From contig JAKBCM010000024.1 in assembly GCA_021807845.1 (NCBI GenBank), positions 1 through 12,774 of the forward strand: 12,774 nucleotides of DNA. Reading direction: 5' to 3'. The translations under genes were made by a program, and so were the position numbers. Of the stretch, positions 3,248 to 7,170 are shown in pieces; position 1 is the stretch's first letter; each line of letters begins with the position of its first letter. The notes under the pieces were generated by a model. That model did not search any database, had not been told where the DNA came from, and saw only the letters and a list, made by a program, of their open reading frames with translations. The stretch comes from Pseudomonadota bacterium. Its GTDB lineage: Bacteria > Pseudomonadota > Gammaproteobacteria > Legionellales > Legionellaceae.

Positions 3248-4462
3248 CTAATTGAAACCACTCAAAAACAAACACTCAAATCCAGAAAAGGCAAGACTGT
3301 GATGTTTTCTTGAAGCCTTGTGGTAAGCATCCATCTTAAGATGAGGAAATCGCGTTAATAACGCATGAAACACACTATGCATCATGATCCGCCCAAGTTT
3401 TGCTCCTAAACAAAAATGCCCTCCATAGCCATAGCTGAAAGGTTGGTTTTTATGATCATTGATATTGATCCTATCTGGCGTTAAAAAATAATGTGGATCA
3501 CGGTTTATGGCATGGTTTGCCATAAAAATAACTGCGCCTTTGCTTATTTTTTCTTGGCCTATACATGTATCGTTTTTCGCGATGCGAAAAAGAAAAGTCA
3601 CGGCAGGATCTAGACGATTACACTCCTCAATGTATTCATCCAGATGTTCGATATTTTCCCGTATTTCTTGCCAAAGACCAGGTAATGAGAGCATGGTGAA
3701 TAAGTTATTGCAGAGTTGATCTGTGGTGGTGACTTGGCCGGCTACTAACATCATGATGGCTTGAGAAATGATCTCATCATCGGTTAAGTCAAAATGAGAT
3801 TGATGTGTGAGTAGCGTACCTAAAAAATCTTGGTCTGGATTTTTTCGCCGTTTTTCAATCAGATTGGCAAAGTAGTGATACAATTTTTGTGCGCTATCAT
3901 TCACCTTGATGCCATCTCTATTTTGGTAAGCGCTAGCGCCTCCAAAAAATTGGGTCATGTTATTGGACCAATGATAAAATGCATCTCGTTCATGGTGGGG
4001 GATATGAAATAATTCAGCCAACGTTGTGGAAGGGAGTATTTGTGCCAGTTCAGTCACAAAGTCGTAAGTAGAATGTTTGTTAACCTTTTTTAAACATTGT
4101 TCAATGGTTTTATCAATCACAGGCTTTAACTGCTGAATACAATAGGCAGTGAAACCATGGTAACAAATACGGCGTCTATTTTGATGCGCCTCACCATCAC
4201 TCATGACCATCATTTTGCTCACCACTTTAAAAAAATCGTCCAGCAAAGATAAATTCATCTCTGGCATGCGAGAAATAAAAAAAGAGGAGCGATCACAACT
4301 ATAATCCTCACTCATCAAGATTGATTTTGCTAATTCATAGGATGTGATCACATAAAATTGACCAGGTTCCCACCAAAAGTATTCACCCATACGACGGATT
4401 TTTTGACTAAATTCAGCAGGGGTGGTGGTTTTCTTTAATTCCAGCAAGTTTGTTGTGATCAT
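3248..4462 (-). CDS. Cytochrome P450, tailoring enzyme of the isonitrile locus
   Basis: A soluble bacterial-type P450 of 404 residues, about the usual length, without a membrane anchor. The haem motif FSYGYGGHFCLG spans 342-353, with C351 as the axial thiolate. The K-helix ExxR is E280-CN-R283, and the C-helix H93/R97 pair is present. The I-helix reads AGQVTT at 241-246, so the usual Asp/Glu before the conserved Thr is Val244. This acid normally helps proton delivery for O-O cleavage, so activity may be altered or substrate-assisted. Its start overlaps the end of the upstream oxygenase gene in an ATGA arrangement (4459-4462), indicating translational coupling and a shared pathway. It presumably oxidises the product of PvcA and PvcB; the reaction cannot be deduced. 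Electron-transfer partners are not encoded nearby. Confidence 0.92.
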   Translation of the reverse strand: MITTNLLELKKTTTPAEFSQKIRRMGEYFWWEPGQFYVITSYELAKSILMSEDYSCDRSSFFISRMPEMNLSLLDDFFKVVSKMMVMSDGEAHQNRRRICYHGFTAYCIQQLKPVIDKTIEQCLKKVNKHSTYDFVTELAQILPSTTLAELFHIPHHERDAFYHWSNNMTQFFGGASAYQNRDGIKVNDSAQKLYHYFANLIEKRRKNPDQDFLGTLLTHQSHFDLTDDEIISQAIMMLVAGQVTTTDQLCNNLFTMLSLPGLWQEIRENIEHLDEYIEECNRLDPAVTFLFRIAKNDTCIGQEKISKGAVIFMANHAINRDPHYFLTPDRININDHKNQPFSYGYGGHFCLGAKLGRIMMHSVFHALLTRFPHLKMDAYHKASRKHHSLAFSGFECLFLSGFN

Positions 4463-5238
4463 AAAATTTGTATCCTTCTCAAATGCCTAGGCGTATGTTT
4501 GGTGAATGCATTGCGGCCATGGAGGAGTGAAAAATTATCGGCGATTAAGTAATCCCCTTGCTGCCATTGATGGACATAACAGCAATGGGGTTGGCGCATG
4601 TTTTGACTCATCTCAGTCAAAATCGTTTTTGATTCTAAAGCGTGTTTACCAACAACCTGGACATCAACCGGATTTAAATAATCCTCTCCCACGGGCTCTG
4701 CAAAGCGAAGGATGGTTTGACGCGTATCAGGATGTTTCTGAACAAGTTTGGCTGTGATTTGTCCACCATAATGGGCTTTTTTTTCAGTGCTAAATTGCAG
4801 TTGTAAATCAGACCAAAATGCTCGTTGTGATGCTGTTGCTGATTTCCAAACCATGTTGGTATTTACAAATAGCGTTTCCCCTCCAGTATTGGGTTTTGGC
4901 GCATCTATGCAATGAAACAATAAAAAGCGCGGTTCTTGATGAAAGGCACCATCCCAATGTAGGGGGACATCACCTTCGGTAAAAAGATAATTTTCAGCGT
5001 GTTTGGAGACTTTCATCTCCATCACTTCACCAAATTCCCATGACACCAACCCTGCATTTTTTTTGCAAAATTGTAACAAATCATCACGAGAGAGCGCAGG
5101 AAATCCTCGAAAAATCACCAAATGATGACGACGAACCAAGGTTAAAATTTGCTTAAAGTTTTCATCGGTCAGATCTTGTCGAAGACTACTTTCTAGCAAA
5201 TATGGTTTAAATAAGTTATTTTTTTCATGGATGGTCAT
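4459..5238 (-). CDS. pvcB: PvcB-type Fe(II)/2-oxoglutarate-dependent oxygenase (TauD/TfdA superfamily)
   Basis: 259 residues with the TauD-fold facial triad: HWD at 94-96 (His94, Asp96) and His240 in LLHGRNAF. The 2-oxoglutarate-binding Arg is in the C-terminal RHLRRIQIL (251-259), and GGET at 119-122 is typical of the family. PvcB/IsnB enzymes act on isonitrile-bearing Tyr or Trp derivatives and give either the vinyl isonitrile by oxidative decarboxylation or the desaturated acid. The gene starts at an ATG that overlaps the stop of the synthase gene by one base (TAATG), with GGAGG just upstream. It ends in a 4-base overlap with the P450 start. The PvcB assignment rests on the TauD motifs plus adjacency to pvcA. 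Which of the two product types it makes cannot be read from the sequence. Confidence 0.9.
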   Translation of the reverse strand: MTIHEKNNLFKPYLLESSLRQDLTDENFKQILTLVRRHHLVIFRGFPALSRDDLLQFCKKNAGLVSWEFGEVMEMKVSKHAENYLFTEGDVPLHWDGAFHQEPRFLLFHCIDAPKPNTGGETLFVNTNMVWKSATASQRAFWSDLQLQFSTEKKAHYGGQITAKLVQKHPDTRQTILRFAEPVGEDYLNPVDVQVVGKHALESKTILTEMSQNMRQPHCCYVHQWQQGDYLIADNFSLLHGRNAFTKHTPRHLRRIQIL

Positions 5239-6256: not shown

Positions 6257-6267
6257 AATTATTTCTT

Positions 6268-7170
6268 ATGAAGATAGATTTTGAAGCATTACATGTGTTT
6301 GTAACGGTTGTTGAATCCGGAGGCTTTAATGCTGCTGTCAGTCAGCTATTTAAAACACAACCTGCTATTACAATGGCCGTGAAAAAACTAGAAGAGCAAC
6401 TTGGGATTACGTTATTTGATCGCAGTCATTATCGTCCCATACTCACATCAGAGGGGGAGCGGTTATTCCAACGCAGTAAAGCCTTAATCAAACATTGGAA
6501 TCACATCAATCAATTTGCTGATCACTTGAAATCAAAAATGGAAAGTGACATCACGATTGCCATTGATGATTTTTATCCTCTGATGAGTTTAAAGCCTTTA
6601 TTTACGCTCTGGATGGATAGATATCCTGAAACAAATTTCCATTTTTTATCTGAATCTTTAGGTGGGGCTTCTGAGCGTCTGGAAAATCACCAAGCGGATT
6701 TTATCATCAGTGAGAATTTAATAACAAAACATGCTGTTGAAACCATACTCATGCGCGTAGAGCCCATGATTGCAGTAGCCACAGTTGATTTTATCCAACG
6801 ACACCACCATCAACTACAAAATTTGGATACGTTAAGTGATTGTATGCAAGTGATTTTACGAGACTCTTCAGAAGCTCAGCATTCTTTTGGGGTCATTGAA
6901 AACTGTCGTCATTGGACAGTAAGAGATGTTATTGCCAAAAAAGAAATCATTTGTTCGGGCTTAGGCTGGGGCCGTTTACCGGAACACTTGATCAAGAGAG
7001 AACTGACCGAAGGTCAGTTACACATGTTAGTAGGCAATCATTTTGATACAAGATTAATTACTTTATCTGCTATTCGGCTACAACAACCTACTTATGGCAT
7101 CATTGCATCTCAACTGTGGGAGGATTTGAAGGCATCGTTGAGCCTCATTAATTCTTATCACGAAAAATGA
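6268..7170 (+). CDS. LysR-type transcriptional regulator of the isonitrile operon
   Basis: A 300-residue LysR-family regulator. The N-terminal winged helix-turn-helix covers about residues 1-65 (SGGFNAAVSQLFKTQPAIT, KKLEEQLGITLFDRSHYRPI, LTSEGERLF), followed by the linker helix and an effector-binding domain from about residue 90. It is transcribed divergently from pvcA, the standard place for a LysR that controls its neighbour, and P. aeruginosa pvc genes also have LysR-type control. The effector is unknown. No ribosome-binding site is visible before the ATG, so the transcript may have a very short leader. Its last 23 bases overlap the 3' end of infA on the other strand. Confidence 0.9.
   Translation: MKIDFEALHVFVTVVESGGFNAAVSQLFKTQPAITMAVKKLEEQLGITLFDRSHYRPILTSEGERLFQRSKALIKHWNHINQFADHLKSKMESDITIAIDDFYPLMSLKPLFTLWMDRYPETNFHFLSESLGGASERLENHQADFIISENLITKHAVETILMRVEPMIAVATVDFIQRHHHQLQNLDTLSDCMQVILRDSSEAQHSFGVIENCRHWTVRDVIAKKEIICSGLGWGRLPEHLIKRELTEGQLHMLVGNHFDTRLITLSAIRLQQPTYGIIASQLWEDLKASLSLINSYHEK

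What the first reader, a model, noticed from the sequence alone, without database searches (positions are those of the whole stretch)
3248..7170. Compact isonitrile (isocyanide) biosynthesis locus: pvcA-pvcB-P450 with divergent LysR
The three enzymes overlap by 1 and 4 bases in one operon, so they should be made together and act in one pathway. The PvcA and PvcB motifs are clear. PvcA makes an isonitrile from Tyr or Trp and PvcB oxidatively modifies the side chain (established for Pvc, Isn and related enzymes). A translationally coupled P450 as third enzyme recalls fungal isocyanide synthase clusters and the yeast DIT1/DIT2 pair more than the simple bacterial two-gene cassette. The product could be a new isonitrile or a derived coumarin-, dimer- or indole-type compound, perhaps a metal ligand or a phenoloxidase inhibitor as rhabduscin is.
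Basis: partly seen in the sequence, partly recalled or inferred. Interest (0 to 1): 0.85.

Follow-up and report, generated by a model that had tools for sequence, protein, structure and literature searches.

The report
Isonitrile-making gene cassette with P450
A four-gene cassette in an uncultured Legionella relative encodes an isonitrile synthase, a desaturating dioxygenase, a P450 and their own switch; the gene set was already reported in Legionella, but it also occurs in predatory bacteria and looks tuned to tryptophan rather than tyrosine.

Summary
In detail: pvcA (6170-5238), pvcB (5238-4459) and a P450 (4462-3248) form one overlapping operon with a divergent LysR (6268-7170). The arrangement is not new. 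Tobias et al. 2016 (PMC5126622) report that Legionella isnAB is always found with a P450 and a helix-turn-helix protein.

What I add:
- The cassette is a tight unit. In 143 Legionellaceae genomes all 23 copies of this P450 lie next to pvcA; 22 have the full lysR<>pvcA-pvcB-P450 set with a 4-base pvcB/P450 overlap.
- The triad also occurs in Bdellovibrionota: P450 in 17 of 368 genomes, pvcA in 16 of those 17.
- PvcA and PvcB group with the tryptophan enzymes of hapalindole-type clusters, not with the tyrosine-type references; PvcB residues that hold the tyrosine ring are replaced.
- The P450 family has lost the usual I-helix acid.
- The lysR-pvcA gap holds a conserved operator/promoter-like element.

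Best reading: an isonitrile pathway, more likely from Trp than Tyr, finished by the P450. Product unknown. The Dit1/Dit2 parallel is analogy only.

The parts
5238..6170 (-). pvcA/isnA: isonitrile synthase, 310 aa, superclade II (Trp-like)
4459..5238 (-). pvcB/isnB: Fe(II)/2-oxoglutarate desaturase, 259 aa; HWD at 94-96, distal His in LLHGRNAF; A98/F99/H100 and A180 at the PIsnB M105/Y106/K107 and N188 positions
   Evidence: Pfam TauD; phmmer to 7tcl 7e-48 and 3eat 5.1e-47; residue table
3248..4462 (-). cytochrome P450, 404 aa; I-helix MLVAGQVTTTDQ, K-helix EECNRLDPAV, heme loop FSYGYGGHFCLG
   Evidence: Pfam p450; motif counts over 138 rows; model and fold match
6268..7170 (+). divergent LysR-type regulator, 300 aa
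   Evidence: Pfam HTH_1 and LysR_substrate; orthologue beside pvcA in 22 of 143 Legionellaceae genomes
6235..6256 (.). inverted repeat (8-base arms; 6 of 8 pairs in the window, 5 to 8 of 8 in the 21 other loci scored), LysR-box-like
   Evidence: arms chosen by eye, no shuffle control; function inferred
6222..6236 (.). element conserved in 23 lysR-pvcA gaps (ATATTATCAA-n-TTAT read towards pvcA)
   Evidence: 14 of 15 columns invariant in 23 rows; 0 of 10,000 column shuffles reach that; the longest invariant run is reached by 5 of 10,000
6204..6233 (-). candidate pvcA promoter TTATCA-18-TATCAT
   Evidence: scan (the scan total of 12 equals the shuffles, 11.9) and position in the conserved block
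6227..6256 (+). candidate lysR promoter TTGATA-18-CATAAT
   Evidence: scan, same caveat

Best explanation
A self-contained, probably LysR-controlled cassette for one small isonitrile metabolite. PvcA joins the nitrogen of an aromatic amino acid, more likely L-tryptophan than L-tyrosine, to a carbon from ribulose-5-phosphate to make the isonitrile. PvcB desaturates the side chain, probably with loss of CO2 as in WelI3, giving an indole vinyl isonitrile. The P450 then oxidises that product (ring hydroxylation or oxidative coupling). LysR binds the lysR-pvcA gap and switches the operon, perhaps in answer to the product. Shown here: gene content, order, overlap, co-inheritance, clade, pocket residues, conserved gap element. 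Inferred: amino acid, order of steps, P450 reaction, control.
For: Families and folds. Linkage: P450 in 23 of 143 Legionellaceae genomes, all 23 beside pvcA; full four-gene cassette with 4-base pvcB/P450 overlap in 22 of 23, plus the window; P450 in 17 of 368 Bdellovibrionota genomes, 16 of them with pvcA; in a draw of 369 gammaproteobacterial genomes the P450 is in 4, two of them Legionellaceae already counted, and the other two have pvcA and pvcB beside it. Trp side: PvcA tree, 44-row side (99/93) with both F. muscicola WelI copies and no Tyr reference; PvcB tree, 31-row set (97/87) with the F. muscicola WelI3 and all 19 triad rows; Tyr references in the opposite 36-row side, 100/99. Pocket: A98/F99 in 19 of 19 triad rows, as in WelI3, against M/Y in PIsnB and PvcB; M105 and Y106 line the Tyr ring pocket of PIsnB (PMC9467999 section 7). 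WelI3 too has Ala at the 188 position. WelI1/I3 of Westiella were assayed with Trp, and I1-I3 proteins are over 94% identical across these clusters, F. muscicola included (PMC4236562 passages).
Against: Only one Trp reference set (the F. muscicola copies, themselves not assayed) and two Tyr sets (P. aeruginosa Pvc, PIsn) stand in the trees; clade is not proof of substrate. The trees are unrooted, and treekit warned of long branches that meet. A passage of PMC4236562 says Isn and Pvc both start from tryptophan, against the Tyr label that I give Pvc after PMC9467999 and recall. L070, which the PvcB tree puts at the base of superclade II, has M/F in the pocket and was counted with I. The published selectivity rule (K/R107 + N/H188 = vinyl; L + C = acrylate) fits neither way here: H100 and A180. 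L034 has the two enzymes without a P450 on its 6.5 kb contig, and G250 has P450 and pvcA about 590 kb apart. No product, expression or enzyme data.
Confidence: 0.58

Rival explanations
1. Tyrosine pathway ending in a P450-made dimer: PvcA/PvcB give a tyrosine vinyl isonitrile or isocyanoacrylate, and the P450 couples two phenols, as proposed for XanG and Dit2 (xanthocillin, dityrosine).
Against: PvcA and PvcB are on the Trp-reference side of both trees; Tyr-ring pocket residues replaced in 19 of 19 triad rows; best solved matches of the P450 are PksS, BioI and CYP109-type enzymes.
Confidence: 0.22
2. Another amino acid (for example Phe, or an aliphatic one as for fungal CrmA) is the substrate, with the same three-step logic.
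For: Superclade II is broad (Hymenobacter, Streptomyces, Aquimarina) and most rows are uncharacterised as far as I know; the window's PvcA has Trp192 where 42 of 43 superclade II rows have Phe; CrmA uses valine (PMC9381783, start of abstract in the listing).
Against: The one superclade II reference set belongs to clusters whose enzymes were assayed with Trp.
Confidence: 0.12
3. The P450 is a passenger: it does not act on the PvcA/PvcB product (for example it detoxifies the isonitrile or serves other metabolism).
For: G250 keeps the P450 and pvcA about 590 kb apart.
Against: 23 of 23 Legionellaceae copies are beside pvcA; 4-base overlap in 22 of 22 full cassettes plus the window; among the 23 + 17 genomes with the P450, only G194 has no pvcA found, and its copy sits at a contig end.
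Confidence: 0.06

Closest known systems
Legionella isnAB cluster with P450 and HTH protein (Tobias et al. 2016, PMC5126622, cluster L)
   Same: Same four gene kinds; the text says the P450 and HTH protein are 'always associated' in Legionella (Fig. 3L itself not seen).
   Different: The window is from another, unnamed species. The passages read give no substrate class, Bdellovibrionota members or promoter element. The genus also has a second locus without this P450 (pvcA-pvcB-FAD monooxygenase, e.g. L. longbeachae L027), so 'always' does not hold for every pvcAB locus.
WelI1/WelI2/WelI3 of hapalindole-type clusters (Fischerella)
   Same: PvcA and PvcB superclade; PvcB pocket HWDGAF and RFAEP.
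   Different: No prenyltransferase or MEP gene among the 12 window proteins scanned; a P450 instead.
PvcABCD of Pseudomonas aeruginosa (paerucumarin) with PtxR
   Same: pvcA-pvcB core; PtxR, encoded next to pvc, is a LysR-family activator of it (PMC3639982 passages).
   Different: Other superclade; PvcC and PvcD in place of a P450 (gene names; their families recalled).
PIsnA/PIsnB (rhabduscin type)
   Different: Other superclade; window has A/F/H and A where PIsnB has M/Y/K and N.
Fungal XanB-XanG and yeast Dit1-Dit2
   Same: Isocyanide synthase plus P450 logic (PMC5974471 passages).
   Different: Synthase and dioxygenase are separate proteins here; P450 nearest in the PDB to PksS/BioI/CYP109; likely another amino acid.

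Membership tests
PvcA/IsnA isonitrile synthase | Pfam PF05141 over its cut-off | tested here: met
   237.7 bits against 26.4
PvcA/IsnA isonitrile synthase | Isonitrile synthase fold | tested here: met
   [not shown]
L-tyrosine isonitrile synthase (NCBIfam NF045653) | Equivalog cut-off 600 bits | tested here: not met
   215.1 bits
PvcB/IsnB Fe/2OG desaturase | TauD domain with HxD...H iron motif | tested here: met
   PF02668 140.5 bits; HWD 94-96 and distal LLHGR align with PIsnB
PIsnB type (vinyl isonitrile) | K/R at 107 and N/H at 188 | tested here: not met
   H100 and A180 in the window; rule from PMC9467999 section 12. The F. muscicola WelI3 fails it too (A and A)
PvcB type (isocyanoacrylate) | Leu at 107 and Cys at 188 | tested here: not met
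   H100 and A180
WelI3-like PvcB (superclade II) | Grouping with WelI3 and A/F pocket | tested here: met
   31-row set 97/87; A98/F99
WelI1/I3 function | Uses L-Trp, makes indole vinyl isonitrile | not testable with these tools
   needs enzyme assay
Hapalindole-type cluster | Aromatic prenyltransferase and MEP genes nearby | tested here: not met
   none among 12 window proteins scanned; prenyltransferase and DXS present at L052
Cytochrome P450 | Heme Cys loop and ExxR | tested here: met
   Cys351, E280 and R283 each in 138 of 138 rows
Standard P450 monooxygenase | Acid before Thr in the I-helix (AGx[D/E]TT, recalled) | tested here: not met
   V/I in 136 of 138 rows; Glu in the four best solved matches shown
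Dit2/XanG P450 | Direct sequence kinship to Dit2/XanG | not tested
   no fungal sequence compared
Legionella isnAB-P450-HTH cluster | All four genes together in a Legionella-type genome | tested here: met
   pmbA beside it is 71% identical to that of L. brunensis

The most novel reading that the evidence does not exclude
One three-enzyme module, found in relatives of host-cell invaders (Legionella, Aquicella) and in predatory bacteria (Bdellovibrionota), makes an undescribed family of P450-finished indole isonitriles. Its P450 is a separate family that has dropped the I-helix acid, and so may couple or desaturate rather than hydroxylate. The metabolite would then be a shared tool of bacteria that live inside other cells.
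Probability: 0.3. Interest if true: 0.68.

Novelty: new member of a known kind. Interest (0 to 1): 0.45.

Why it matters
Isonitriles bind iron strongly (PMC9467999) and can be antimicrobial (PMC11290450, start of abstract). In the listings and passages I saw, no product is reported for the Legionella cluster (searches). Placing the enzymes on the Trp side changes what chemists should look for, and the Bdellovibrionota copies give a harmless source in which to find the product. The conserved I-helix change in a P450 tied to one pathway is a clean case for studying how a P450 works on a substrate that can bind heme.

Tried and rejected

Papers: PMC5126622 passages and section 20; PMC9467999 outline and sections 4, 7, 9, 12; PMC13005658 outline and passages; PMC4236562, PMC3639982, PMC5974471, PMC10792529 passages only; PMC9381783 and PMC11290450 start of abstract in a search listing only. 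Paper searches. One search (Bdellovibrio + isonitrile) listed 3 papers; I read passages of one (PMC10792529: no Bdellovibrio isonitrile cluster in them) and only titles and abstract starts of the other two.

Full report

Already in print. Tobias et al. [quoted passage not shown] 3L)' (PMC5126622; figure not seen). No product is given in the section read. The four-gene finding is therefore a new member of a known kind.

How tight the unit is. By the coordinates all 23 P450 genes lie beside pvcA. In the 23 regions fetched, 22 have lysR<>pvcA-pvcB-P450 with a 4-base pvcB/P450 overlap; the last, G097, has pvcA-pvcB-P450 with no overlap there and no LysR orthologue. The chance that all 23 P450 genomes fall among the 51 pvcA genomes is 9e-13 without correction for kinship. 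The 46 PvcB genomes split into 23 with this type (216-375 bits) and 23 with the other (144-165 bits), and none has both; P 0.012, not corrected for kinship. In the named loci that I looked at, the other type goes with an FAD monooxygenase-like gene and not this P450 (L027 by Pfam; L044 and L020 by the look of the sequence). Comparing up to three ORFs on each side, the 22 fetched cassettes plus the window fall into two main neighbourhoods (11 and 10 loci); L155 and the window share no flanking gene with any other.

Beyond Legionella. The same P450 occurs in 17 of 368 genomes of the phylum of B. bacteriovorus. PvcB is directly upstream in 15 of the 17 loci and pvcA is seen in the same short locus in 13; 16 of 17 genomes have a pvcA. 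In G172 and G247 pvcA lies on another contig, the P450 being near a contig end. The exceptions are G250, with pvcA about 590 kb away, and G194, whose P450 lies at a contig end with no pvcA found. How many Bdellovibrionota have pvcA without the P450 was not measured. In an even draw of 369 gammaproteobacterial genomes the P450 rings in 4: two are Legionellaceae already counted, and the other two have pvcA and pvcB beside it. A named example is Bdellovibrio bacteriovorus kdesi (L026); Aquicella lusitana and A. siphonis have both a PvcA and a P450 of this family (adjacency not checked). One search gave no paper on isonitriles in Bdellovibrio among the passages read.

Which amino acid. From 80 loci of 218 relatives I built trees of PvcB (78 rows) and PvcA (84 rows), unrooted, with long-branch warnings. 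Both split deeply. In the PvcB tree one side (36 rows, 100/99) holds the tyrosine references, PvcB of P. aeruginosa and PIsnB, and 9 Legionella loci without this P450. The other holds all 19 triad rows and the tryptophan reference, the wel cluster of Fischerella muscicola SAG 1427-1 (L052; cluster named in PMC4236562; neighbouring prenyltransferase and DXS). The smallest well-supported PvcB set with WelI3 and all triads has 31 rows (97/87). In PvcA the side with both WelI copies and all 19 triads has 44 rows (99/93) and no tyrosine reference; the head of that tree's print was cut from the output. The F. muscicola enzymes were not themselves assayed; the Westiella WelI1/I3 were, with Trp, and the paper gives over 94% identity across the clusters. 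PIsnA is crystallised with L-tyrosine (title of 9dh4). Residues agree: PIsnB holds the tyrosine ring with Met105 and Tyr106 among others (PMC9467999), and these are Ala98 and Phe99 in 41 of 41 rows that I assigned to superclade II, against Met in 37 of 37 and Tyr in 35 of 37 of the rest (L070 is the awkward row, see Tried and rejected). In PvcA, Gly82 (43 of 43), Phe192 (42 of 43; Trp in the window) and His196 (42 of 43) of superclade II stand where most rows of I have Ala (39), Tyr (39) and Thr (37) (which prints the three commonest letters); 192 and 196 lie on a helix (186-206) with the invariant G194, R197, F198, E201 and D202. The published rule for vinyl or acrylate products does not cover this type: at PIsnB position 107 the 19 triad rows have His 13, Tyr 5, Leu 1, and at 188 Ala 19; WelI3 has Ala at both. 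I therefore favour Trp, at moderate confidence, with one Trp reference set only.

The P450. Over 138 rows (window, 18 triad loci, 119 database proteins, some proteins present twice) the I-helix reads MLVAGQ[V/I]TTTDQ; the acid of the usual motif (recalled) is V or I in 136 of 138. The four best solved matches of the family profile (PksS, BioI, CYP109E1, 4rm4) have Glu there. Cys351, E280 and R283 are in 138 of 138. The enzyme should thus be active but may protonate oxygen differently, which fits coupling or desaturation as well as hydroxylation (inference). In B. bacteriovorus kdesi a UDP-glycosyltransferase-like gene overlaps the P450 by 4 bases, which suggests a product with a hydroxyl or NH to glycosylate; on the Trp reading the P450 could supply that hydroxyl (inference).

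Control. Across 23 lysR-pvcA gaps, ATATTATCAA-n-TTAT is invariant in 14 of 15 columns; 0 of 10,000 column shuffles reach this and 5 of 10,000 reach the longest run of 10, while only 18 of 398 third codon positions of the P450 are invariant in the same 23. Beside it lies an inverted repeat (ATTAAGTT-n6-AACTTAAT in its best form; 5 to 8 of 8 pairs in the 22 loci scored; no shuffle control). In the window the conserved block overlaps candidate divergent promoters, TTATCA-18-TATCAT towards pvcA and TTGATA-18-CATAAT towards lysR. LysR control, as by PtxR in Pseudomonas (PMC3639982), is the natural reading; the effector is unknown and no Fur box was found.

Verdict. The sequence claim is confirmed. 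The pathway claim is well supported. The parallel with Dit1/Dit2 is gene-content analogy.

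Noticed in passing
L174:5752-6318, L175:1443-2135, L176:1789-2496, L054:9707-10351: A further small ORF (188-235 aa) follows the P450 directly in these four Bdellovibrionota loci. One of the four has a GNAT acetyltransferase match; three have none.
   Followed up: partly
L026:9809-10978: UDP-glycosyltransferase-like gene overlapping the P450 by 4 bases in B. bacteriovorus kdesi.
   Followed up: partly
L027:6920-11540; also L044, L020: A second isonitrile locus in Legionella: pvcA-pvcB-FAD monooxygenase and an ATP-grasp protein (Pfam for L027), with an MFS-like gene by eye in L044 and L020, and a LysR only distantly like the window's.
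   Followed up: partly
L014:8687-10471: In Aquimarina a tryptophan-halogenase-family flavoprotein follows a superclade II pvcA-pvcB pair.
   Followed up: no
window 8569-10203: TPP enzyme nearest the benzoylformate decarboxylase model (274 bits, cut-off 493), no match at 1e-40 in 10 Legionellaceae genomes tried.
   Followed up: partly
window 10358-11734 and 11764-12165: Two proteins (458 and 133 aa) without any Pfam match.
   Followed up: no
G003, G059, G073: These Legionellaceae genomes each carry three PF05141 matches, one of them weak (about 62 bits) in an open frame of 522-575 aa.
   Followed up: no
[not shown]
   Followed up: no
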